Shown here: positions 1,631 through 35,005 of the stretch, piece by piece
Numbering within the stretch: the stretch's first letter is position 1
Layout of the letters: the number at the start of each line of letters is the position of its first letter
Origin: Hydra vulgaris
Taxonomy: Eukaryota; Cnidaria; Hydrozoa; Anthoathecata; Hydridae
DNA: 64,000 nucleotides
Direction: 5' to 3'
NCBI RefSeq assembly: GCF_038396675.1
Contig: NC_088926.1
Span: 28,736,001-28,800,000 of the forward strand
Made by a program: the position numbers and the translations under genes
Notes under the pieces: model-generated
What the model was told of the DNA's origin: nothing
Databases searched by the model: none
The model's input: only the letters and a program-made list of their open reading frames with translations

Positions 1631-2337
1631 TTCCAACATCTACTTTCTCAACTTTGCTTTTAAAATGTTTAGTTAATTCAAAAGTATGCTTTTAGTTTCT
1701 TTCGTTTTTGAATTCGGAAGATAACATATTTAAAAAAGCTTACATGTTCATAATTAGACTTCACAAAATTCATAAAGGAAACTCTCAAAATCACTAAAAT
1801 AGTTTAATGATTCAGTTAAAATAATGTTATCCATATCTTGTGACAAAACATCCGCCATCTTTATATCTCTCCACACGATATTTATAATCACGATGTCCGT
1901 ACGACTATCTTTCCATAACTCATCACTATGCTGTTTTACTCTAGTCAATTTTTAAGAGATCTACTAATTATCTCTGCCAGTCAAAAATTTGCTTAACAGA
2001 TAATCACTTTTTGCTTGTGCTTTAATACTATCAAGTACTTTTTCATTCAGTTTTATGCGTTTTTATGCTTTTTACGCCTTTTTTTGCATTTTAAAAATTT
2101 TGACAAAATAAAAAGAAAATTTGCGGCTACAATTTTTCACTTAAATAATAAAATTTTTCTCACTGTTTTTTATATGAACCAACAGGTTAAGTTATATTTA
2201 TTATATTGTTTAAGAAATTTTGGCCTTATCATAAATAGATATGTTGCCATATATATGTTTTATGTTCACATGTAAAATAATCGATGAAAACACTCAAATG
2301 CACCCAGTTGCATCAGTTTTTTATTTCTATTAGGGAT
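1631..2337. other. Intergenic stretch between hAT element and U1 fragment
   Basis: AT-rich, with two short unrecognised reading frames (1754-1948 minus and 2015-2275 plus) that are both conserved in the other arm but resemble no family I know. The 85 bp next to 2338 is the conserved U1 3' flank shared by all U1 copies here. Confidence 0.4.
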
Positions 2338-2472
2338 GGAAGCGAGCGTGAACGCAGGATTCCCCTACCAGAAATTATACTGTCGAGTTACCGACGTTAG
2401 CGGTAATCGCAGATGTCAGCCGGTGCGAAGTGCAATGCACAAGCCTCACTCTGGAAGAAGCCCCTTGTGGAT
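2338..2472 (-). pseudogene. U1: U1 snRNA 3' part (nt 29-164), copy A, left arm
   Basis: On the minus strand this matches the other U1 copies from nucleotide 29 onward, beginning ATCCACAAGGGG. It keeps stem-loops II-III, the Sm site (ATAATTTCTGGTAG) and stem-loop IV with its GCGTTCGCGC-like loop, here GCGTTCACGC. The first 28 nucleotides, including the 5' splice-site recognition sequence, are absent and are replaced by two hairpins and a LINE. The missing 5' piece lies at 8111-8134, on the far side of the LINE. The conserved U1 3' flank follows at lower coordinates. It cannot make a functional U1. Confidence 0.88.
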
Positions 2473-2587
2473 GATATTGTGTTTATATTTTCATTAGTCC
2501 GCCAGCTAATTGGGCGGACTAATGAAAATATAAACACAATATTCTTGTCAAGTAGTCCACAAGCCTTGTGGACTACTTGACAAGAAT
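2473..2587. repeat. Two abutting near-perfect hairpins
   Basis: Hairpin 1 (2541-2587) has arms of 23 nt with a 1-nt centre. Hairpin 2 (2474-2542) has 30-nt arms around a 9-nt loop, and its arms contain ATTAGTCCGCC. They share the bases around 2541. The apex of hairpin 1 contains TCCACAAG, the same word that begins U1 nucleotide 30, which suggests it arose by fold-back copying at the LINE/U1 junction. Confidence 0.85.
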
Positions 2588-2756
2588 AACATAGAAATAT
2601 TTACAAAGTTTTTCCTATGCTTTTCAAGTCGAGAAACGGAGCGCATCAAGAATAAGCGAGTTTAGAAAAGTAAGAAAAAAGTAAAAAGAAAAGGCGAAAA
2701 TTTAAAATAAAAAAATAAAAAGTTTGGGTCTTTCAAAAAGTATAAGGTTTTTTTAT

Positions 2757-5700
2757 TTAATTTAAAAATTGGTTTAACTTATTTTCTAGTTTTATATTTC
2801 CGTTTGTATCTCTTATTTCTTTAGTTTCATTTAAAAAAGAGTGTAATTGGTTGTTTTCTTTAGCAATGTCGTGTTCGATCTGAAGTATTTTTTTAATTTT
2901 AGATATATATGCTCTTAGAAGGCTTATTCATGCGCTCATACTACTCTCATGATAAGCTCTCATTCTTATAGAATAGACATAATATAAAAGCTCGTCAAGC
3001 AATAAATTACCAATTTCAATTTTTGGCGCGTTTTCAATAAAACCAAAAAGATAAAAATTAAAAGTGTTTTTAAAAGGTTAACTGTCTTATAAGTCTTATT
3101 TAGCAAATATATTGTGTATTTGATAATAAAGGTTGTTTTTTTTCGCAGCTATATATCATGTGAGACTCTATCTTTCATACACTGGGGACAAAGGTCACCT
3201 GATGACCTTTGTGGATGGAGTTTGTGGGTAGCGCAAAGTGAATGGCTTTATATTTTATTTTTTTGCTTTGTTGTTATTATTTCTTTTGAAAATGTTTTGA
3301 GAGAGGAGCGATCATTCCTTTGAGGATGTGCCCGTCATGCTCTTTTCAAAAACAGAGTTCCACCTAGTAAACAGGGTTGTTACACCCAAACTGTATTTCT
3401 TTTTCATAAGAAAATCGTAAATTGGTTTTGATGTTAGGTCGGTTATCAAAACCGGTTTTAGGGGGTGTATTAAGTTTCTTAGGGTGAAATTTGATTTGCT
3501 ATGGTAATAAGATTGATCTTCCTTTTTAATTTTTGTTTTCCAAACACGTGGAATGGAGTTTTTAATTTTTTTAAATGTTGTTTGTTTAAGACCGGTTAAC
3601 TGGTAATCCAAGAAACCAGGTTCAAAAACCTTTGCAAGATCAGATATTTTGGATATTTGGTTCAAAGTAGTTTCTTTTTTAGGTTTTATAGTCTGGTGGT
3701 TTTTGTCTCTAATAAAATAGTTATAAAAAGTGTGCTGGTCGAGGATTTCCTCAATACACATATTTTTTATGTCGCTCTCACCGTTAAAAATCTGACTCCT
3801 GTTTTTAATTAGTTGCTGGTAGAACACAGGGAGAGTATCAATTGCACTGCTTGAGTGGGTTGTGATAAATATATTTTCTCCTTGATTAGTTTTTCTATAA
3901 CTATTGAAAATATGCGTCGCAGCGTCTTTCCATGCGCCTGTTAGGGTGTGATTAAAATTTTTTGCCACCCCAGTCAGCTGGATGGATTTTAGTTTTTTGC
4001 CTATATCTTTAATGATTAAACCTCCTCGGCTGAAAGGAAGTTTAGAAACTTTTTGGTTTGTTTTAATTGAGCTGTTGCTCCAGAGAAAATTTTCAACAAT
4101 TTTTTCGATAAATTTGATAATTCTATCGTTAGGTATTGGCAACGTAAAAGCTAAGTGCCAAAGGTTAATTAAGAGTATTTGATTAATTACTATTCTTTTT
4201 CCTTTAAAGGATAAGTTCAACATTTGCCAGCGTTTAATTTTCTTTTGAATAGTGGCAATGCTTTCGTTCCATTTCTTATTGTTAACTAAACAATCTCTAT
4301 TGGAAAAGTAAATACCCAAGCTTTTAAGGGTGTTTTCTTCCCAGTTAAAGTTTAGAAAATTTTGTTTGTTTTTTGTTTTATTATTTCCAAGCCACAAGCC
4401 TTGGCATAATTGCTGGATTTTAGTTTCTTTTTGGTTTATTGTTATTCCTTTTATGTTTTTGTTTGCTCTTATGTATCCTGAGAAAATTTCGGCTTGTATG
4501 ATATATAGAATTATCGAAAGAGGACAACCCTGCCTTATTCTTCTGCGATTTTCAACTTTTTCAGATAAAAGTCCGTTTATTTTTATTTGCGCGCTTATGT
4601 CGTAATATATTGTTTTAATAAAATTTATAAATACGGTATTAAAACCAAAAAAAGATAAAATGTCATATAGATAGTTTCTATCAACTCTATCAAATGCCTT
4701 GACCTGGTCAATGGATATAATAGACGCATCAAATTGGTTTTTGTTAGATATTCTTATAATATCTTTGGTGTAGCATAAATTGTAATATATGGTTCTCCGA
4801 GGGACGCATGCTGTTTGATTTTCGTTTATAATCAAAGGTAGAACATTTTTTAGTCTATTTGCAATTATCTTAGTTATGATTTTATAGTCTCTATTCAAAA
4901 GGGAGATAGGACGCCAATTGTTAATATCTGTCTTATCTCCTTTTTTAAACAAACATATGATTATTACTTTTTTTTGGCTTTCGCACATTTCACTGCTGCT
5001 AAACGTTTCGTTTATAGCTGCGGCCAGCAATTCCCCAAACAAATAAATATTTTGCTTGTAGAATTCGATGGTGAGGCCGTCGCTTCCAGGTGATTTGTTA
5101 TTTTGCATCGTTTTCAGCGCCCTTTTAATTTCTATAATTGATATTAGCATTTCTAGTTCTTTACTTAAAGTTTTGGGTACTCTTTGAATAGGGGATGTTT
5201 TAGAAAAAAGAAAGTTTTGACTTTTTTCGTTGCATTTTTCGCTTGCATAGAGTTCTCTATAATAATTTTTGAACTCTTTGAGGATTTCATCTTTTTCTGA
5301 TTTAATGTTGTTGTTCTTATCCTTTATTTTTGTTGTTACTTGTTTTGCTGGTTTTAGCTTTTCTAATTGAAAAAACGAGCGACTGCATTTTTCGCCTTCA
5401 AGTCGCCATTTAATTTTTGCTCTTATTGACGCGCCATGCGCTCTATTTGTTTCAAAAATTTTAAGTTTGTTTTTGATGTCAGCTCTCAAAATCTGCATGC
5501 GTGGGTTCAGGTGCGCTTTTTTAACTGCGTTTTAAATATTTTTTTAGTTTATATTCTTTAATCCTGTTATTTTTTGCCTGTTGTTTACATAATTTTTTTG
5601 CGTGTTCTTTTAGTTTACTTTAAAGATTTTCCCACGTTTCTTTTTTAGATTCTACGTTTTCGGATGTTTTATTGCTAATAATTGCTTCAATTTGATTTAA

Positions 5701-6498
5701 ATAGTTTTTATTTTTTAAGTGTTTATTATTAAAAATCCACAGACTTTTACCCATCTCTATTTTGTCAAGGGTAATGGAGGCAACGCACGCGTTATAGTGG
5801 TCAGAATGCGCCATCGGTTCGTGTTTTATCTCCACATTTTGTCTCGTTTTTTTACTTGAATAGATTCTATCGAGTCGAGAATAAGAAATATTGTTTGTGG
5901 CTTTACAAGTGAATTCTTGTTTATTTGGATTAAAAAGACGAAAAAAGTGTCCTCTACTTCGAGTTTATTACTTAATTTTTTAAGTTTCTCCGTCGAGGAG
6001 CATTTTTCCGGTAAATTTATGGATGCCTATCAATTTCGTTTAAAATCATATTAAAATCTCCAACCAAGACTACTAAAACGTTTTCTAAATTTATATGTTT
6101 AATTTTGTTTTCGATTAATTCAAACAATTTTTCTCTGTGTTTAGAAAAATCTTGTCGGAGAGAGCGTATACGTTTAGCTAAAGAATGTTTTGTTTGTTTA
6201 ATTTTGTTAATATGTAATTAAAAACTCCATTTTTGTCATCGAATTTTTCGTATCGTTTTAGCACGTGTTCGGTTTAGCACTTGTTTGCTGTCCCATCTGT
6301 GCGGGTCCTACCGGCAGAGGTAAAAACGCTGCCTTTCCAGTTTTTTGATAACTCATCGTTTTGTAACTTATTTAAATGAGTGTCTTGTAATAAATAAAAA
6401 TCGTAATTTAGTTTTTCGAAACTATTAAAAACTGCATCTCGTTTTTGCTTATTTATTAGACCAGCAACGTTGACTGAGAAAATGCTTATTATATCCAT
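2757..6498 (-). pseudogene. LINE ORF2: APE endonuclease and reverse transcriptase, left arm
   Basis: The start at 6498 (MDIISIFSVNVAGL) is an L1-type APE endonuclease N-terminus with LLQDTHL. Later frames give GDFNM, SRLDRIYSS and AHSDHYNACV, the remaining endonuclease motifs, separated by frameshifts. From 5498 to 3312 a 728-codon frame is open. It has the palm motifs NKSPGSDGL, NWRPISLL, DQVKAFDRV and RQGCPLS, then passes directly from ETKIQQ to GLWLGNN. The expected F/YADD box and roughly 60 surrounding residues are missing, so one catalytic aspartate pair is lost. A C-terminal cysteine segment near 3190 (CPQCMKD-like) is frameshifted. The other arm shares the deletion but has more frameshifts. 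Confidence 0.88.
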
Positions 6499-6518
6499 TT
6501 ATCAATGTCTAGGCATTT

Positions 6519-7254
6519 TCTATCCCTAAGTAGGAGATCCGTAATTAAGAATATGCTTATAAGCACATTCTTATTTGGAATGCCAACTTCTGGTGGTTTA
6601 GAGTTAATTAGTTTCGTGTTGAAATATTCGTATAAAAGTAAACTTGTTTTAAAAAAACCGTTTATAAAAATTAAGGAAAAACTAAAAAATAAGAAAAACT
6701 TTTTTCAGCATGCTGCTTTGATCGCTTGTTCCCATTCTTTTTTTCAATCATTTTTGTGTGGAGTCGGTGGTGGTGCACTGCGTTTTGTTTGTCACGTGTT
6801 GTCTTCGTCCATTTTTTCTCAACCTTTTTCGTTCGCTTCTTCCGCTCGCTTACTTTCTTCGGCGTCTTTCGAGTGATTCTCCTCTTCTTCTGCTTCTTTG
6901 TTCGTCGGCTTTTCGAAGCAGTATTCTTTTCTAATTTGTTTCGAGTGTCTTCCGTTGTTCTTCTCTAGCCTTTTCGTGTTGAGCATCGTTCTTATTCTGT
7001 TTTGTTGCTTGTTTCTTCTCTTCTTCTTCTTCATTAGTTTGTTCTTCTTCGTTTTCAAATACGATGTTTTTTTTTTTTTTGTAACGGTTGGTTTATTTAT
7101 GTTTTCATCATTTGTTACTTTAGATGGATTTTCTTCGGTTTTTGAGTTGCTTGTTTCAAGTTCACATGTTGGTTGTTGATGGGTTAGTGTAGGTGAAGTT
7201 TCGTTTTTTGAGTCGCGAGGTTGTCTTTTTTCTGTGTGGTTGTGTATTTTCTAA
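6519..7254 (-). other. Highly charged ORF1/ORF2 junction region of the LINE
   Basis: Minus-strand frames encode a lysine/glutamate-rich low-complexity stretch, such as EEEQTNEEEEEKKQ and many KR runs, probably the frameshifted C-terminal tail of ORF1. Opposite-strand frames in this stretch are Phe/Leu-rich shadows. Confidence 0.5.
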
Positions 7255-8027
7255 CCGTTGTGCCTAGTTCGTATTTTATAGCCTACGATGTTTAGGGAGG
7301 CTGGATTTGGCTTTGGCATGTCTTCCATGAAAGCAACCAGGGTACCGGAGTAGTTGGGCGTGCCTTTTCCTGGCGTTGTCCTCATTACCGGTTTTGTGTA
7401 GACACGTCTACCGTATCCTATTTCTTCAAAAAAAACTTCCAATCTTAAATTGTTATGCTTCAATTGGAAGGCCAAATACTGATACGTGTGTTTGGTTTAA
7501 GCGTTTTCTTTCTAATTTTGGCCTTCGATTTATATTAGATATTTTGAAAGCATGCTGGTAATTGTTAATTTTTAAACCATTTTCTAATAATTTTATTCTG
7601 GCTTCGTTGGTTTTCATAACAATTTCGGTAGCTGTGTTTCGTCGTAAAATTGCACGCCTTCAAGTTCTTCGTCTAGGTTTTCTTTTTCTACCGCTTTTAA
7701 GAAGTCGTTTTGAGTGAAATGATCTTCTATTTCGCAAATAAGTAATTTTGGTAAGTTTCGTTTCTTTATTTCTGCTTTTGCTGCTTCAACATAGTTTCTT
7801 GGTTGTTTTTTAATTTTTTGTTGATTTTCGCATTCATCATCCGAAGCTTCATCGCTACTATAATAGATTTCAACTTGTTCGTTCGATTTACCAGCAGAAG
7901 CTTTCGCCATTTTTTCAAGTAGAATTAATGATATTTCTTCGGTTTGTTGATTTTCCGTAAAAGGTAATTGAGTATCATCATCAGTTTTGAAAAAAACTGT
8001 TTCTCGTTGCTTTGTAAAGCACGCCAT
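7255..8027 (-). pseudogene. LINE ORF1 (nucleic-acid-binding protein), left arm
   Basis: An open frame of 137 codons starts at 8027 (MACFTKQRETVFF). It has an acidic middle (YYSSDEASDDE) and a region like LEGVQFYDETQLP. Reading then continues in other frames through ARIKLLENGLKIN, THVSVFGLPIEA and a conserved block with EIGYGRRVYTKPV and YSGTLVAFMEDMP, ending near 7255. Position just upstream of ORF2 and the charged composition mark it as LINE ORF1. The second block could be an RRM-like domain, but I cannot prove this by eye. A diverged copy of the same protein lies at 14050-14612. At least two frameshifts make it a pseudogene. Confidence 0.7.
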
Positions 8028-8110
8028 TTAAAAGATTAATCCAATTTCAAATTAAAACATTTACCAAAAACTGAAAATACTTAGTGACTAAAGAAGCAGC
8101 TCCATGACCC

Positions 8111-8134
8111 GACTTAACTTCCCAGTCAGGTTAA
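8111..8134 (-). pseudogene. U1: U1 snRNA 5' fragment (nt about 5-28), left arm
   Basis: On the minus strand it reads TTAACCTGACTGGGAAGT then TAAGTCG, against U1 TTACCTGACTGGGAAGTAAG. The match ends at U1 nt 28 with three single-base indels. It abuts the LINE 5' end. Together with 2338-2472 (nt 29-164) it makes up nearly a whole U1. Confidence 0.75.
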
Positions 8135-8209
8135 TTTAAATATGTTCACGTGGAAAATAGTTGCTAGTAACACCCACCCAGTTACTTCAGTTTTCTATTG
8201 TACAAAGAA

Positions 8210-8372
8210 GGAAGCGAGCGCGAACGCAGGCTTCCGCTATCAGAAATTATACTGTCGAGTTACCGACGTTAGCGGTAATCGCAGAGGTCAGCCGGTGCGA
8301 AGTGCAATGCACAAGCCTCACTCTGGAAGAAGCCCCTTGTGGATCGAACTTACTTCCCAGTCAGGTAAGTAT
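8210..8372 (-). ncRNA. U1: U1 spliceosomal snRNA gene, copy B, left arm
   Basis: A full-length 163-nt U1 on the minus strand. The 5' end ATACTTACCTG is the splice-donor recognition sequence. It is followed by the stem-loop I region, the GCATTGCACTTCGC stem-loop II, stem-loop III, the Sm site ATAATTTCTGATAG, and stem-loop IV closed by the GCG-TTCG-CGC tetraloop. U1 snRNA pairs with 5' splice sites and carries the U1-70K, U1A, U1C and Sm proteins in the nucleus. The upstream block is shared with copy C, so it was probably a transcribed gene. Protein-like frames through it are artefacts. Confidence 0.93.
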
Positions 8373-15729: not shown

Positions 15730-15893
15730 AGGAAGCGAGCGCGAACGCAGGCTTCCGCTATCAGAAATTATACTGTCGAGTTACCGACGTTAGCGGTAAT
15801 CGCAGAGGTCAGCCGGTGCGAAGTGCAATGCACAAGCCTCACTCTGGAAGAAGCCCCTTGTGGATCGAACTTACTTCCCAGTCAGGTAAGTAT
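15730..15893 (-). ncRNA. U1: U1 spliceosomal snRNA gene, copy C, left arm
   Basis: An intact 164-nt U1 on the minus strand with ATACTTACCTG at the 5' end, the GCATTGCACTTCGC stem-loop II, an ACTCGACAGTATAATTTCTG Sm region and a complete TTCG-capped stem-loop IV. It has the same upstream block as copy B and looks the most intact of the three in this arm. It is identical to its mirror at 21000-21163. Confidence 0.94.
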
Positions 15894-20999: not shown

Positions 21000-21163
21000 A
21001 TACTTACCTGACTGGGAAGTAAGTTCGATCCACAAGGGGCTTCTTCCAGAGTGAGGCTTGTGCATTGCACTTCGCACCGGCTGACCTCTGCGATTACCGC
21101 TAACGTCGGTAACTCGACAGTATAATTTCTGATAGCGGAAGCCTGCGTTCGCGCTCGCTTCCT
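21000..21163 (+). ncRNA. U1: U1 spliceosomal snRNA gene, copy C, right arm
   Basis: Identical to the left-arm copy C. It reads in the plus direction from ATACTTACCTGACTGGGAAG to the stem-loop IV end CGCTCGCTTCC. Splice-donor pairing region, stem-loops and Sm site (TATAATTTCTGATAG) are all present. The two copies C point away from the palindrome centre, 5.1 kb apart. Confidence 0.94.
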
Positions 21164-28269: not shown

Positions 28270-28425
28270 ATACTTACCTGACTGGGAAGTAAGTTCGATC
28301 CACAAGGGGCTTCTTCCAGAGTGAGGCTTGTGCATTGCACTTCGCACCGGCTGACCTCTGCGATTACCGCTAACGTCGGTAACTCGACAGTATAATTTCT
28401 GATAGCGGAAGCCTGCATCGCTTCC
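28270..28425 (+). ncRNA. U1: U1 snRNA gene, copy B, right arm, with stem-loop IV deletion
   Basis: Same as left-arm copy B except for a 7-nt loss in the 3' stem-loop: GCCTGCATCGCTTCC replaces GCCTGCGTTCGCGCTCGCTTCC. This removes the TTCG tetraloop and one side of its stem. The 5' splice-site sequence, stem-loops I-III and Sm site are intact. Stem-loop IV stabilises U1, so this copy is probably impaired if the deletion is real. Confidence 0.88.
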
Positions 28426-28504
28426 TTCTTTGTACAATAGAAAACTGAAGTAACTGGGTGGGTGTTACTAGCAACTATTTTCCACGTGAACATATTTAAA
28501 TTAA

Positions 28505-28528
28505 CCTGACTGGGAAGTTAAGTCGGGT
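28505..28528 (+). pseudogene. U1: U1 snRNA 5' fragment (nt about 5-28), right arm
   Basis: Mirror of 8111-8134, about 80 bp after the end of U1 copy B. The sequence before it is the 3' flank of copy B, not a U1 promoter. The LINE follows at once. Confidence 0.72.
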
Positions 28529-28607
28529 CATGGAGCTGCTTCTTTAGTCACTAAGTATTTTCAGTTTTTGGTAAATGTTTTAATTTGAAATTGGATTAAT
28601 CTTTTAA

Positions 28608-29385
28608 ATGGCGTGCTTTACAAAGCAACGAGAAACAGTTTTTTTCAAAACTGATGATGATACTCAATTACCTTTTACGGAAAATCAACAAACCGAAGAA
28701 ATATCATTAATTCTACTTGAAAAAATGGCGAAAGCTTCTGCTGGTAAATCGAACGAACAAGTTGAAATCTATTATAGTAGCGATGAAGCTTCGGATGATG
28801 AATGCGAAAATCAACAAAAAATTAAAAAACAACCAAGAAACTATGTTGAAGCAGCAAAAGCAGAAATAAAGAAACGAAACTTACCAAAATTACTTATTTG
28901 CGAAATAGAAGATCATTTCACTCAAAACGACTTCTTAAAAGCGGTAGAAAAAGAAAACCTAGACGAAGAACTTGAAGGCGTGCAATTTTACGACGAAACA
29001 CAGCTACCGAAATTGTTATGAAAACCAACGAAGCCAGAATAAAATTATTAGAAAATGGTTTAAAAATTAACAATTGCCGGCGTGCTTTCAAAATATCTAA
29101 TATAAATCGAAGGCCAAAATTAGAAAGAAAACGCTTAAACCAAACACACGTATCAGTATTTGGCCTTCCAATTGAAGCATAACAATTTAAGATTGGAAGT
29201 TTTTTTTGAAGAAATAGGATACGGTAGACGTGTCTACACAAAACCGGTAATGAGGACAACGCCAGGAAAAGGCACGCCCAACTACTCCGGTACCCTGGTT
29301 GCTTTCATGGAAGACATGCCAAAGCCAAATCCAGCCTCCCTAAACATCGTAGGCTATAAAATACGAACTAGGCACAACGGTTAGA
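28608..29385 (+). pseudogene. LINE ORF1, right arm
   Basis: The N-terminal 137 codons (28608-29021) are identical to the left arm. A second frame from 29160 contains the GRRVYTKPV and TLVAFMEDMP block. Between them a 3-5-bp difference from the left arm occurs near 29078. It carries the same frameshifts as the left arm and is not functional. Confidence 0.7.
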
Positions 29386-30141
29386 AAATACACAACCACA
29401 CAGAAAAAAGACAACCTCGCGACTCAAAAAACGAAACTTCACCTACACTAACCCATCAACAACCAACATGTGAACTTGAAACAAGCAACTCAAAAACCGA
29501 AGAAAATCCATCTAAAGTAACAAATGCGTTGAAAACATAAATAAACCAACCGTTACAAAAAAAAAAAAAAACATCGTATTTGAAAACGAAGAAGAACAAA
29601 CTAATGAAGAAGAAGAAGAGAAGAAACAAGCAACAAAACAGAATAAGAACGATGCTCAACACGAAAAGGCTAGAGAAGAACAACGGAAGACACTCGAAAC
29701 AAATTAGAAAAGAATACTGCTTCGAAAAGCCGACGAACAAAGAAGCAGAAGAAGAGGAGAATCACTCGAAAGACGCCGAAGAAAGTAAGCGAGCGGAAGA
29801 AGCGAACTAAAAAGGTTGAGAAAAAATGGACGAAGACAACACGTGACAAACAAAACGCAGTGCACCACCACCGACTCCACACAAAAATGATTGAAAAAAA
29901 GAATGGGAACAAGCGATCAAAGCAGCATGCTGAAAAAAGTTTTCTTATTTTTTAGTTTTTCCTTAATTTTTATAAACAGTTTTTATTTTAAAACAAGTTT
30001 ACTTTTATACGAATATTTCAACACGAAACTAATTAACTCTAAACCACCAGAAGTTGGCATTCCAAATAAGAATGTGCTTATAAGCATATTCTTAATTACG
30101 GATCTCCTACTTAGGGATAGAAAATGCCTAGACATTGATAA

Positions 30142-33100
30142 ATGGATATAATAAGCATTTTCTCAGTCAACGTTGCTGGTCTAATAAATAAGCCAACGAG
30201 ATGCAGTTTTTAATAGTTTCGAAAAACTAAATTACGATTTTTATTTATTACAAGACACTCATTTAAATAAGTTACAAAACGATGAGTTATCAAAAAACTG
30301 GAAAGGCAGCGTTTTTACCTCTGCCGGTAGGACCCGCACAGATGGGACAGCAAACAAGTGCTAAACCGAACACGTATAAAACAATACGAAAAATTCGATG
30401 ACAAAAATGGAGTTTTTAATTACATATTAACAAAATTAAACAAACAAAACATTCTTTAGCTAAACGTATACGCTCTCTCCGACAAGATTTTTCTAAACAC
30501 AGAGAAAAATTGTTTGAATTAATCGAAAACAAAATTAAACATATAAATTTAGAAAACGTTTTAGTAGTCTTGGTTGGAGATTTTAATATGATTTTAAACG
30601 AAATTGATAGGCATCCATAAATTTACCGGAAAAATGCTCCTCGACGGAGAAACTTAAAAAATTAAGTAATAAACTCGAAGTAGAGGACACTTTTTTTCAT
30701 CTTTTAATCCAAATAAACAAGAATTCACTTGTAAAGCCACAAACAATATTTCTTATTCTCGACTCGATAGAATCTATTCAAGTAAAAAAACGAGACAAAA
30801 TGTGGAGATAAAACACGAACCGATGGCGCATTCTGACCACTATAACGCGTGCGTTGCCTCCATTACCCTTGACAAAATAGAGATGGGTAAAAGTCTGTGG
30901 ATTTTTAATAATAAACACTTAAAAAATAAAAACTATTTAAATCAAATTGAAGCAATTATTAGCAATAAAACATCCGAAAACGTAGAATCTAAAAAAGAAA
31001 CGTGGGAAAATCTTTAAAGTAAACTAAAAGAACACGCAAAAAAATTATGTAAACAACAGGCAAAAAATAACAGGATTAAAGAATATAAACTAAAAAAATA
31101 TTTAAAACGCAGTTAAAAAAGCGCACCTGAACCCACGCATGCAGATTTTGAGAGCTGACATCAAAAACAAACTTAAAATTTTTGAAACAAATAGAGCGCA
31201 TGGCGCGTCAATAAGAGCAAAAATTAAATGGCGACTTGAAGGCGAAAAATGCAGTCGCTCGTTTTTTCAATTAGAAAAGCTAAAACCAGCAAAACAAGTA
31301 ACAACAAAAATAAAGGATAAGAACAACAACATTAAATCAGAAAAAGATGAAATCCTCAAAGAGTTCAAAAATTATTATAGAGAACTCTATGCAAGCGAAA
31401 AATGCAACGAAAAAAGTCAAAACTTTCTTTTTTCTAAAACATCCCCTATTCAAAGAGTACCCAAAACTTTAAGTAAAGAACTAGAAATGCTAATATCAAT
31501 TATAGAAATTAAAAGGGCGCTGAAAACGATGCAAAATAACAAATCACCTGGAAGCGACGGCCTCACCATCGAATTCTACAAGCAAAATATTTATTTGTTT
31601 GGGGAATTGCTGGCCGCAGCTATAAACGAAACGTTTAGCAGCAGTGAAATGTGCGAAAGCCAAAAAAAAGTAATAATCATATGTTTGTTTAAAAAAGGAG
31701 ATAAGACAGATATTAACAATTGGCGTCCTATCTCCCTTTTGAATAGAGACTATAAAATCATAACTAAGATAATTGCAAATAGACTAAAAAATGTTCTACC
31801 TTTGATTATAAACGAAAATCAAACAGCATGCGTCCCTCGGAGAACCATATATTACAATTTTGTATTTACACCAAAGATATTATAAGAATATCTAACAAAA
31901 ACCAATTTGATGCGTCTATTATATCCATTGACCAGGTCAAGGCATTTGATAGAGTTGATAGAAACTATCTATATGACATTTTATCTTTTTTTGGTTTTAA
32001 TACCGTATTTATAAATTTTATTAAAACAATATATTACGACATAAGCGCGCAAATAAAAATAAACGGACTTTTATCTGAAAAAGTTGAAAATCGCAGAAGA
32101 ATAAGGCAGGGTTGTCCTCTTTCGATAATTCTATATATCATACAAGCCGAAATTTTCTAGGATACATAAGAGCAAACAAAAACATAAAAGGAATAACAAT
32201 AAACCAAAAAGAAACTAAAATCCAGCAATTATGCCAAGGCTTGTGGCTTGGAAATAATAAAACAAAAAACAAACAAAATTTTCTAAACTTTAACTGGGAA
32301 GAAAACACCCTTAAAAGTTTGGGTATTTACTTTTCCAATAGAGATTGTTTAGTTAACAATAAGAAATGGAACAGAAAACATTTTCCACTATTCAAAAGAA
32401 AACCTAAAACCTGGCAAATGTTGAACTTATCCTTTAAAGGAAAAAGAATAGTAATTAATCAAATACTCTTAATTAACCTTTGGCACTTAGCTTTTACGTT
32501 GCCAATACCTAACGATAGAATTATCAAATTTATCAAAAAATTGTTGAAAATTTTCTCTGGAGCAACAGCTCAATTAAAACAAACCAAAAAGTTTCTAAAC
32601 TTCCTTTCAGCCGAGGTTTAATCATTAAAGATATAGGCAAAAAACTAAAATCCATCCAGCTGACTGGGGTGGCAAAAAATTTTAATCACACCCTAACAGG
32701 CGCATGGAAAGACGCTGCGACGCATATTTTCAATAGTTATAGAAAAACTAATCAAGGAGAAAATATATTTATCACAACCCACTCAAGCAGTGCAATTGAT
32801 ACTCTCCCTGTGTTCTACCAGCAACCAGTTCAAAACAGGAGTCAGATTTTTAACGGTGAGAGCAACATAAAAAATATGTGTATTGAGGAAATCCTCGACC
32901 AGCACACTTTTTATAACTATTTTATTTAGAGACAAAAACCACCAGACTATAAAACCTAAAAAAGAAACTACTTTGAACCAAATATCCAAAATATCTGATC
33001 TTGCAAAGGTTTTTGAACCTGGTTTCTTGGATTACCAGTTAACCGGTCTTAAACAAACAACATTTAAAAAAATTAAAAACTCCATTCCACGTGTTTGGAA

Positions 33101-33881
33101 AACAAAAATTAAAAAGGAAGATCAATCTTATTACCATAGCAAATCAAATTTCACCCTAAGAAACTTAATACACCCCCTAAAACCGGTTTTGATAACCGAC
33201 CTAACATCAAAACCAATTTACGATTTTCTTATGAAAAAGAAATACAGTTTGGGTGTAACAACCCTGTTTACTAGGTGGAACTCTGTTTTTTGAAAAGAGC
33301 ATGACGGGCACATCCTCAAAGGAATGATCGCTCCTCTCTCAAAACATTTTCAAAAGAAATAATAACAACAAAGCAAAAAAATAAAATATAAAGCCATTCA
33401 CTTTGCGCTACCCACAAACTCCATCCACAAAGGTCATCAGGTGACCTTTGTCCCAGTGTATGAAAGATAGAGTCTCACATGATATATAGCTGCGAAAAAA
33501 AACAACCTTTATTATCAAATACACAATATATTTGCTAAATAAGACTTATAAGACAGTTAACCTTTTAAAAACACTTTTAATTTTTATCTTTTTGGTTTTA
33601 TTGAAAACGCGCCAAAAATTGAAATTGGTAATTTATTGCTTGACGAGCTTTTATATTATGTCTATTCTATAAGAATGAGAGCTTATCATGAGAGTAGTAT
33701 GAGCGCATGAATAAGCCTTCTAAGAGCATATATATCTAAAATTAAAAAAATACTTCAGATCGAACACGACATTGCTAAAGAAAACAACCAATTACACTCT
33801 TTTTTAAATGAAACTAAAGAAATAAGAGATACAAACGGAAATATAAAACTAGAAAATAAGTTAAACCAATTTTTAAATTAA
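30142..33881 (+). pseudogene. LINE ORF2 (EN-RT), right arm
   Basis: The reverse transcriptase is split into frames at 31139-31885, 31828-32160, 32112-32621, 32669-32929 and 32883-33293, where the left arm has a single 728-codon frame. Frameshift sites include about 31860, 32157, 32385 and 32925. The endonuclease start has a short deletion near 30190. Palm motifs SPGSDGL, NWRPISLL, KAFDRVD and RQGCPLS are present. The same YADD-region deletion as in the left arm is found after ETKIQQ, so it predates the arm divergence. Confidence 0.85.
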
Positions 33882-34050
33882 ATAAAAAAACCTTATACTT
33901 TTTGAAAGACCCAAACTTTTTATTTTTTTATTTTAAATTTTCGCCTTTTCTTTTTACTTTTTTCTTACTTTTCTAAACTCGCTTATTCTTGATGCGCTCC
34001 GTTTCTCGACTTGAAAAGCATAGGAAAAACTTTGTAAATATTTCTATGTT

Positions 34051-34163
34051 ATTCTTGTCAAGTAGTCCACAAGGCTTGTGGACTACTTGACAAGAATATT
34101 GTGTTTATATTTTCATTAGTCCGCCCAATTAGCTGGCGGACTAATAAAATATAAACGCAATAT
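34051..34163. repeat. Two abutting hairpins, right arm
   Basis: Mirror of 2473-2587. The first hairpin (34051-34097) is still nearly perfect. The second (about 34096-34163) has gained mismatches: one A lost in the TGAAAATATAAAC arm and ACGC for ACAC. Confidence 0.8.
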
Positions 34164-34165
34164 AA

Positions 34166-34298
34166 CCACAAGGGGCTTCTTCCAGAGTGAGGCTTGTGCA
34201 TTGCACTTCGCACCGGCTGACATCTGCGATTACCGCTAACGTCGGTAACTCGACAGTATAATTTCTGGTAGGGGAATCCTGCGTTCACGCTCGCTTCC
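34166..34298 (+). pseudogene. U1: U1 snRNA 3' part, copy A, right arm
   Basis: Starts at CCACAAGGGGCTTC (U1 nt about 31-32) and continues to the stem-loop IV end. It has the Sm site ATAATTTCTGGTAG and a full stem-loop IV. The 5' end is missing, as in the left arm, with two or three bases of the junction changed. Confidence 0.86.
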
Positions 34299-35005
34299 AT
34301 CCCTAATAGAAATAAAAAACTGATGCAACTGGGTGCATTTGAGTGTTTTCATCGATTATTTTACATGTGAACATAAAACATATATATGGCAACATATCTA
34401 TTTATGATAAGGCCAAAATTTCTTAAACAATATAATAAATATAACTTAACCTGTTGGTTCATATAAAAAACAGTGAGAAAAATTTTATTATTTAAGTGAA
34501 AAATTGTAGCCGCAAATTTTCTTTTTATTTTGTCAAAATTTTTAAAATGCAAAAAAAGGCGTAAAAAGCATAAAAACGCATAAAACTGAATGAAAAAGTA
34601 CTTGATAGTATTAAAGCACAAGCAAAAAGTGATTATCTGTTAAGCAAATTTTTGACTGGCAGAGATAATTAGTAGATCTCTTAAAAATTGACTAGAGTAA
34701 AACAGCATAGTGATGAGTTATGGAAAGATAGTCGTACGGACATCGTGATTATAAATATCGTGTGGAGAGATATAAAGATGGCGGATGTTTTGTCACAAGA
34801 TATGGATAACATTATTTTAACTGAATCATTAAACTATTTTAGTGATTTTGAGAGTTTCCTTTATGAATTTTGTGAAGTCTAATTATGAACATGTAAGCTT
34901 TTTTAAATATGTTATCTTCCGAATTCAAAAACGAAAGAAACTAAAAGCATACTTTTGAATTAACTAAACATTTTAAAAGCAAAGTTGAGAAAGTAGATGT
35001 TGGAA
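34299..35005. other. Stretch between U1 fragment and hAT, right arm
   Basis: Mirror of 1631-2337: U1 3' flank, then AT-rich sequence with unrecognised short frames. Confidence 0.4.

What the first reader, a model, noticed from the sequence alone, without database searches (positions are those of the whole stretch)
28505..34298. A U1 snRNA gene split at nt 28/29 by a Tx1-like LINE
A U1 5' piece (nt about 5-28) abuts the LINE 5' end, and U1 nt 29-164 plus the U1 3' flank follows the LINE 3' end. The two pieces add up to nearly one U1 with no overlap. Both arms show it (8111-8134 and 2338-2472 on the left). Tx1-clade LINEs include site-specific families, such as Keno in U2 snRNA genes, so a U1-targeting family is plausible. 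I do not know of a described U1-specific one. A U1-headed LINE transcript (readthrough from the U1 promoter) would also explain the 5' piece.
Basis: partly seen in the sequence, partly recalled or inferred. Interest (0 to 1): 0.85.

Follow-up and report, generated by a model that had tools for sequence, protein, structure and literature searches.

The report
U1 gene–targeting retrotransposon with U1 head
A self-copying DNA element, and a short partner that shares its tail, repeatedly insert at one exact base inside the genes for the splicing RNA U1, and both carry the first bases of U1 as their own front end, so landing in a U1 gene appears to hand a new copy a ready-made promoter.

Summary
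The 3' junction is real and not chance. Of 39 scored U1 matches in this genome (probably Hydra, inferred), 13 are interrupted by this LINE or by a SINE sharing its 3' tail. U1 resumes at nt 29 in 12 of 13 (10 loci). One truncated insertion has a perfect 17-bp target duplication (nt 29-45). Six occupied/empty sister pairs show clean insertion.

The 5' piece is not the split gene's other half. It is the element's own head, U1 nt 1-45, of another U1 type than the window's genes. Copies outside U1 carry the same head, starting at U1 nt 1-5. So the RNA most likely starts at the U1 start site. In the two sister pairs where target and head differ, the head replaced the target's 5' end beneath an unchanged promoter: homology-guided 5' joining.

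Targeting is a preference: at least 12 LINE and 16 SINE sites lie elsewhere, mostly before AT or ATC, as in U1. The three copies found with full-length open ORF2 all run into U1.

The window copies are old, broken and lack a U1 promoter upstream. My paper searches found no U1-targeting LINE. Closest known: Keno, Utopia, Dada-U1 and (recalled) SINEU.

The parts
28270..28430 (+). uninterrupted U1 gene just upstream of the right-arm LINE (3' stem-loop slightly altered)
   Evidence: Rfam RF00003 126.3 bits
28431..28503 (+). 3' flank of that U1 gene; with U1 nt 29-164 it is repeated behind the LINE (about 206 bp on each side)
   Evidence: BLAST of the five U1 segments of the window
28504..28542 (+). 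element-borne U1 head, about nt 7-45, 'type a' sequence
   Evidence: aligned 5' ends of nine copies; window genes are another type
28543..28607 (+). LINE 5' UTR; its first ~18 nt are near-complementary to U1 nt 1-20 (fold-back), decayed in the window copy
28608..29955 (+). ORF1 remnant (broken into several frames; 437 aa and open in L018 and L019)
   Evidence: the ORF listing
30142..33881 (+). ORF2 remnant (APE endonuclease, RT, zf-RVT in the open copies), broken in the window
34050..34163 (+). LINE 3' end with hairpins; inverted duplication peculiar to the chromosome-7 copies
   Evidence: one search hit pattern
34164..34299 (+). U1 from about nt 31 to 164, host gene part behind the LINE
   Evidence: Rfam 77.9 bits; junction
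8209..8372 (-). uninterrupted U1 gene, left arm
   Evidence: Rfam 143.8 bits
8093..8131 (-). element-borne U1 head, left arm
   Evidence: arms compared
2473..8092 (-). LINE, left arm
2337..2472 (-). U1 nt 29-164 behind the left-arm LINE
   Evidence: Rfam 77.8 bits; junction exactly at nt 29
15730..15893 (-). uninterrupted U1 gene whose 3' flank shows the unoccupied state
21000..21163 (+). uninterrupted U1 gene whose 3' flank shows the unoccupied state

Best explanation
An APE-type LINE and a SINE with the same 3' tail prefer one site in U1 snRNA genes. SHOWN: the element's 3' end is joined to U1 at nt 28|29; one truncated insertion has a 17-bp target duplication (U1 nt 29-45); the element carries U1 nt 1-45 as a permanent head. 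INFERRED: the endonuclease nicks the bottom strand of U1 before ATC, the element RNA is copied there by target-primed reverse transcription, and the RNA itself starts at the U1 transcription start because a copy in U1 is read from the U1 promoter. When the cDNA reaches the U1 head, the head pairs with the target gene's own 5' end, so the new copy is joined precisely beneath a complete U1 promoter and can be transcribed again. Copies that land elsewhere keep the head but have no promoter, and so should be dead ends. The window's two LINEs are old, broken members of this family in one duplicated locus, with an atypical 5' junction in the 3' flank of an intact U1 gene.
For: 3' junctions: of 39 scored U1 matches, 13 are interrupted by this family, U1 resuming at nt 29 in 12 of 13. 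Target duplication: L056, 17 bp ATCCTTAAGGGGTTTCT on both sides of a ~43-bp tail fragment. Empty sites: six occupied/empty sister pairs; upstream identity 120/120, 114/114, 37/37, 120/120, 120/120, the sixth (L056/L061) nearly identical near the gene. Head travels with the element: 14 of 14 off-U1 SINE regions with a head begin at U1 nt 1-5; LINE L031 begins at nt 1-2 between copies of ATCAATCAAA. Homology-guided 5' joint: in both pairs where target and head differ (L019/L081, L055/L062) the occupied allele has the head's letters at nt 22 and 28 and the target's promoter unchanged. Youth at U1: L018 and L019, on different chromosomes and both in U1 with promoter, differ at 5 of 5720 sites; the three scored copies with an open 1287-aa ORF2 of this family (L018, L019, L020) all run into U1. 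Off-U1 sites resemble the U1 site: the flank begins AT in 11 of 12 LINE and 13 of 16 SINE sites, ATC in 10 and 7, against a 1.3% ATC background.
Against: Of the five U1 loci with a full-length LINE, two (the window's chromosome-7 set; L017/L020 on C12) have no U1 promoter directly before the head, although L020 has an open ORF2, so the promoter-restoring step is not universal. For L017/L020 the ~2.4 kb before the head matches the right flank only in its first ~300 bp. The LINE and especially the SINE often sit outside U1. No transcript data: transcription from the U1 promoter is inferred from 5' ends. Gene conversion between sister genes could in part mimic the head replacement. The ATC after the element might partly be element-derived (U1 read-through) where no target duplication is visible.
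Confidence: 0.8

Rival explanations
1. One U1 gene was split by a strictly U1-specific LINE; the 5' and 3' U1 pieces in the window are the two halves of that gene.
For: 3' junction at nt 29; 5' piece abuts the LINE.
Against: The 5' piece is of another U1 type than all four window genes and overlaps the 3' piece at nt 29-45; no U1 promoter precedes it; off-U1 copies carry the same piece.
Confidence: 0.05
2. The U1 head is added again and again by template switching from element RNA onto U1 snRNA, as recalled for SINEU, and there is no transcription from the U1 promoter.
For: U1-headed SINEs are known (paper not held; recalled); one locus (L073/L074) has stray ACCTGA-like filler before the head.
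Against: In the nine LINE 5' ends aligned the head ends at the same place, nt 45, before the same LINE-specific sequence, so it is inherited; nt 45 is also the edge of the target duplication in L056, as expected if the head came from an insertion in a U1 gene.
Confidence: 0.12
3. U1 loci are merely safe places: insertion is random and copies survive there because U1 is multicopy, or the copies were spread with U1 by segmental duplication.
For: U1 genes lie in palindromes, and some occupied loci are duplicates of one another; chromosome 8 shows that copies can be amplified with their flanks.
Against: The same nucleotide is hit in loci with different U1 types, different flanks and different inserts (LINE, SINE, 43-bp tail).
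Confidence: 0.03

Closest known systems
Keno (APE-type LINE in U2 snRNA genes)
   Same: Site-specific APE LINE in an snRNA gene; reported from animals including hydra (passages of PMC4640811).
   Different: Target is U2, not U1. I have no Keno sequence, so relatedness was not tested; whether Keno carries a U2 head was not seen in the passages read.
Utopia (RLE-type LINE in U2 snRNA genes)
   Same: snRNA-gene target with families of strong and weak specificity; disrupted U2 genes next to the element's 3' UTR (passages of PMC4640811).
   Different: Restriction-like endonuclease and U2 target; here APE endonuclease and U1.
Dada-U1 (DNA transposon, zebrafish)
   Same: Inserts at one site in U1 genes (passages of PMC3706591 and PMC8869645).
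   Different: DNA transposon with 6-bp duplications at another U1 site (GCGAAT/C); no reverse transcriptase.
SINEU and Tx1-Mar (crocodilians; recalled, paper PMC4494074 not held)
   Same: SINE heads from U1 or U2, thought to be moved by Tx1-type LINEs (recalled).
   Different: As recalled their preferred target is a Mariner transposon, not a U1 gene; here LINE and SINE both have the head and both insert in U1.
R2 in 28S rDNA
   Same: Works like R2 in part: RNA co-transcribed with the host gene (passages of PMC12203849); 5' joining can be helped by homologous recombination (title of Fujimoto 2004 seen in that reference list only).
   Different: R2 trims the host leader with a ribozyme (same passages) and has an RLE endonuclease (recalled); here the host leader is kept as a permanent head and the endonuclease is APE-type.

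Membership tests
Non-LTR retrotransposon (LINE), APE type | ORF2 with AP-like endonuclease and reverse transcriptase | tested here: met
   Pfam PF03372 E 7.7e-13, PF00078 E 7.2e-30, zf-RVT E 5.6e-7 in L019 ORF2; best solved relative human L1 ORF2p E 2.3e-73, R2 8.9e-17
Non-LTR retrotransposon (LINE), APE type | target duplications and 5'-truncated copies | tested here: met
   L056 17 bp; L031; 5'-truncated copies
Tx1 clade | RT phylogenetic placement with Tx1 elements | not testable with these tools
   no Tx1 or Keno reference sequences available
Keno | insertion in U2 snRNA genes at the Keno site | tested here: not met
   13 of 13 snRNA-gene junctions are in U1; one SINE lies just upstream of a U2-like piece, not in U2
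Utopia | restriction-like endonuclease | tested here: not met
   APE endonuclease at the N-terminus
Strictly site-specific LINE | insertions confined to the target | tested here: not met
   12 LINE sites outside U1
snRNA-headed SINE (SINEU kind) | 5' head from an snRNA gene and a LINE-derived 3' tail | tested here: met
   head U1 nt 1 onward; tail loop CACAAGGCAATTAGCTGGC shared with the LINE
SINEU of crocodilians | sequence homology of body and tail | not tested
   no SINEU sequence available

The most novel reading that the evidence does not exclude
A LINE/SINE pair that regenerates its promoter at every proper insertion. Its RNA begins at U1 nt 1, the U1 head is used as a homology arm that joins the new copy precisely under an intact snRNA promoter, and the head is held in a fold-back with a segment of the element complementary to U1 nt 1-20, which may hide or mimic the 5'-splice-site-pairing end of U1. 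Copies in U1 are the only self-renewing ones.
Probability: 0.4. Interest if true: 0.85.

Novelty: new variant of a known kind. Interest (0 to 1): 0.72.

Why it matters
LINEs must keep a promoter although they often lose their 5' end. This family suggests one answer: aim at a strong, multicopy Pol II snRNA gene, start the RNA at its first base, and use that leader to be joined back under the same promoter. It would add U1 to the host genes used by LINEs, link a site-specific LINE to a SINE with the same host-gene head, and make 5' joining (still poorly understood for LINEs) testable with natural occupied/empty pairs. It also means that about a third of the U1 matches scored here are interrupted.

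Tried and rejected
Rejected: the 5' piece as the other half of the split gene; strict U1 specificity; other snRNA targets for the off-U1 copies: Rfam on 16 loci found only one U2-like piece, beside the SINE in L066. The chromosome-8 copies looked like many off-target insertions, but 12 fetched loci share flanks on both sides in two groups, so I counted them as two sites. A sister-family control: two copies of a family with 54% ORF2 identity have no U1 at their 3' ends; only two of at least twenty were looked at. Fold-back of the head: stable in some copies (z -3.0 L019, -2.2 L018, -2.1 L005, -1.8 L020, -1.7 L031, -1.2 L008) but not in the window, L006 or L047 (-0.1, -0.4, +0.5), and the pairing score 31 only just beats 500 shuffles (maximum 30) though it beats 740 other windows of the LINE (maximum 26). 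The 3' end of copy L008 was not recovered. L037's copy is 5'-truncated or interrupted, so its 5' junction says nothing.

Rows dropped before counts: in the off-U1 site table L074 was merged with L073, two of four L070 copies and L076 (no 3' end) were left out, and each chromosome-8 group counted once. In one search the chromosome-7 copies and duplicate search loci were left out.
Full report
WHAT IS THERE. The window lies on contig C7 of a 911.5-Mb, 15-contig genome; size and contig number suggest Hydra, which is my inference. It holds four uninterrupted U1 genes and two interrupted ones in an 18.4-kb palindrome. Each arm has one LINE of about 5.6 kb, broken in many frames and about 7.8% diverged from the youngest copies.

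THE 3' JUNCTION. A genome search with the U1 model scored 42 of 8500 candidates and reported 39 matches, 36 above the cut-off; these are lower bounds. Twenty-five are uninterrupted (18 of them seen as letters or BLAST matches; seven known only from the model score), 13 are interrupted by this family, and one (L060, C3) lacks the 5' part without a recognised element. In the 13 U1 resumes at nt 29 in 12; the window's right arm resumes at about nt 31. The three C7 records are one duplicated locus and L017/L020 one tandem, leaving ten loci: LINE directly joined at C7, C12:10.57, C15:7.35, C12:72.85 and C12:84.94 Mb; SINE joined at C12:84.92, C14:8.19, C12:72.83 and C12:85.81 Mb (there with a LINE in front); and a ~43-bp tail fragment at C1:23.72 Mb.

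TARGET DUPLICATION AND EMPTY SITES. The C1 fragment (L056) stands between two perfect copies of 17 bp, U1 nt 29-45. Six occupied genes have an uninterrupted sister gene nearby; upstream sequence is identical over 120, 114, 37, 120 and 120 bp in five pairs and nearly so close to the gene in the sixth.

THE HEAD. The nine LINE 5' ends aligned contain U1 up to nt 45 followed by the same LINE-specific sequence. The SINE has the U1 head too, with a 14-nt insertion that looks like a trace of an older insertion at the same site (inference). In 14 of 17 off-U1 SINE regions examined, the copy begins at U1 nt 1-5; the other three lack the head. Direct repeats of 8-17 bp flank 11 of these 14; in L069, L073, L074 and L077 several extra bases stand between repeat and head, and L068 and L079 are less clear. 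LINE L031 starts at nt 1-2 between copies of ATCAATCAAA; L005 and L038, which I take as the two ends of one copy, share ATCATGT. So the head is part of the mobile unit and its first base is the U1 start.

THE 5' JUNCTION AT U1. In the two sister pairs where the target differs from the head (L019/L081, L055/L062) the occupied gene has the head's letters at nt 22 and 28 under the target's unchanged promoter. The joint therefore lies at or before nt 21. I read this as pairing of the cDNA's head with the target's own 5' end; later gene conversion is not excluded. Of five U1 loci with a full-length LINE, three (L018, L019, and L047/L021) have the U1 promoter directly upstream; two (the window set and L017/L020) do not. 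In the window, U1 nt 29-164 plus flank, about 206 bp, lies on both sides of the LINE, as if the second cut had been made about 200 bp downstream. For L017/L020 only the first ~300 bp of the 2.4 kb before the head is found again behind, so that locus is not understood.

ACTIVITY. L018 (C15) and L019 (C12) differ at 5 of 5720 positions and L018 and L020 at 17. Of 36 scored candidates (of 18,984) in a search with ORF2, three of this family have an uninterrupted 1287-aa frame, and these are L018, L019 and L020, all running into U1. Measured against L019 over its last ~1.86 kb, the other U1 copies outside C7 differ by 0-2.3%, the C7 copies by 5.4-6.1%, and the 15 off-U1 loci by 4.7-8.1%, except L033 with 2.35% over only 469 bp. 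This fits copies outside U1 being dead ends, but is not a proof.

OFF-TARGET SITES. Counting the chromosome-8 groups once each, 12 LINE and 16 SINE sites outside U1 were tabulated: AT follows the element in 11 and 13, ATC in 10 and 7, background ATC 1.3%. Where a duplication is visible, the AT(C) belongs to the target. U1 has ATC at this place, so the endonuclease or primer annealing may need only this much, and the rest of the U1 preference may come from homology or closeness; this is inference. A SINE search gave 61 matches with 40 of 1235 candidates scored; seven lie in or next to U1. Tandem SINE units at two U1 loci join at nt 29 of the SINE's own head, as if the head serves as a target.

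RNA STRUCTURE. Just after the head the LINE has a stretch complementary to U1 nt 1-20 (score 31; other windows at most 26; shuffles at most 30), folding stably in six of nine copies and not in three. The SINE has an unlike sequence in the same place with the same pairing score. The 3' tail loop CACAAGGCAATTAGCTGGC is shared by LINE and SINE between stems that differ on both sides (AGTCC/GGACT, TCTCC/GGAGA, CCTCC/GGAGG; 39 distinct tails of 59), suggesting a conserved recognition hairpin.

PROTEINS. ORF1 (437 aa) has no Pfam match; ORF2 has APE endonuclease, RT and zf-RVT, nearest in the PDB to human L1 ORF2p. Families with 45-56% ORF2 identity are present; two copies examined do not end at U1.

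KNOWN RELATIVES. Passages of PMC4640811 state that for snRNA genes only Keno and Utopia (U2), Dada-U1 and Dada-U6 had been reported by 2015, and that Keno occurs in hydra. Passages of PMC3706591 and PMC8869645 describe Dada-U1. My searches listed no paper on a U1-targeting LINE; the library lacks most subscription journals, the SINEU paper is not held, and Repbase could not be searched. SINEU and Tx1-Mar details are recalled.

VERDICT. A real, recently active, U1-preferring LINE with a SINE partner and a permanent U1 head; a new variant of the snRNA-targeting LINE kind.

Noticed in passing
coordinates on C7, C12, C11, C8, C14, C1, C15; window 1-36631: Many U1 genes lie as inverted pairs roughly 4-10 kb apart, often with near-identical flanks; the window's U1 genes lie in an 18.4-kb palindrome.
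   Followed up: partly
L086 (C1:22240000-22241500) 420-898: A SINE copy with a 13-bp target duplication sits about 30 bp upstream of a U2-like start; U2 nt 1 to about 50-60 then runs into a LINE whose ORF1 is 37% identical to this LINE's ORF1, so a U2-headed relative may exist. A second LINE follows in L089.
   Followed up: partly
L048, L049 (C8:35310200, C14:11949150): A stretch like this LINE's ORF1 start lies about 250 bp downstream of an uninterrupted U1 gene, in inverted pairs, without a split U1.
   Followed up: no
C8:50.2-57.3 Mb (L022-L025, L027-L030, L032, L034-L036): LINE copies amplified together with their flanks across 7 Mb of chromosome 8, in two flank groups.
   Followed up: partly
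C2:20.92-21.30 Mb: U2 gene array with 366-bp period and irregular gaps of several kb, possibly element insertions.
   Followed up: no
L070 (C8:19860580-19862250): Four SINE copies in a row, three of them sharing a repeated flank of about 55 bp.
   Followed up: no
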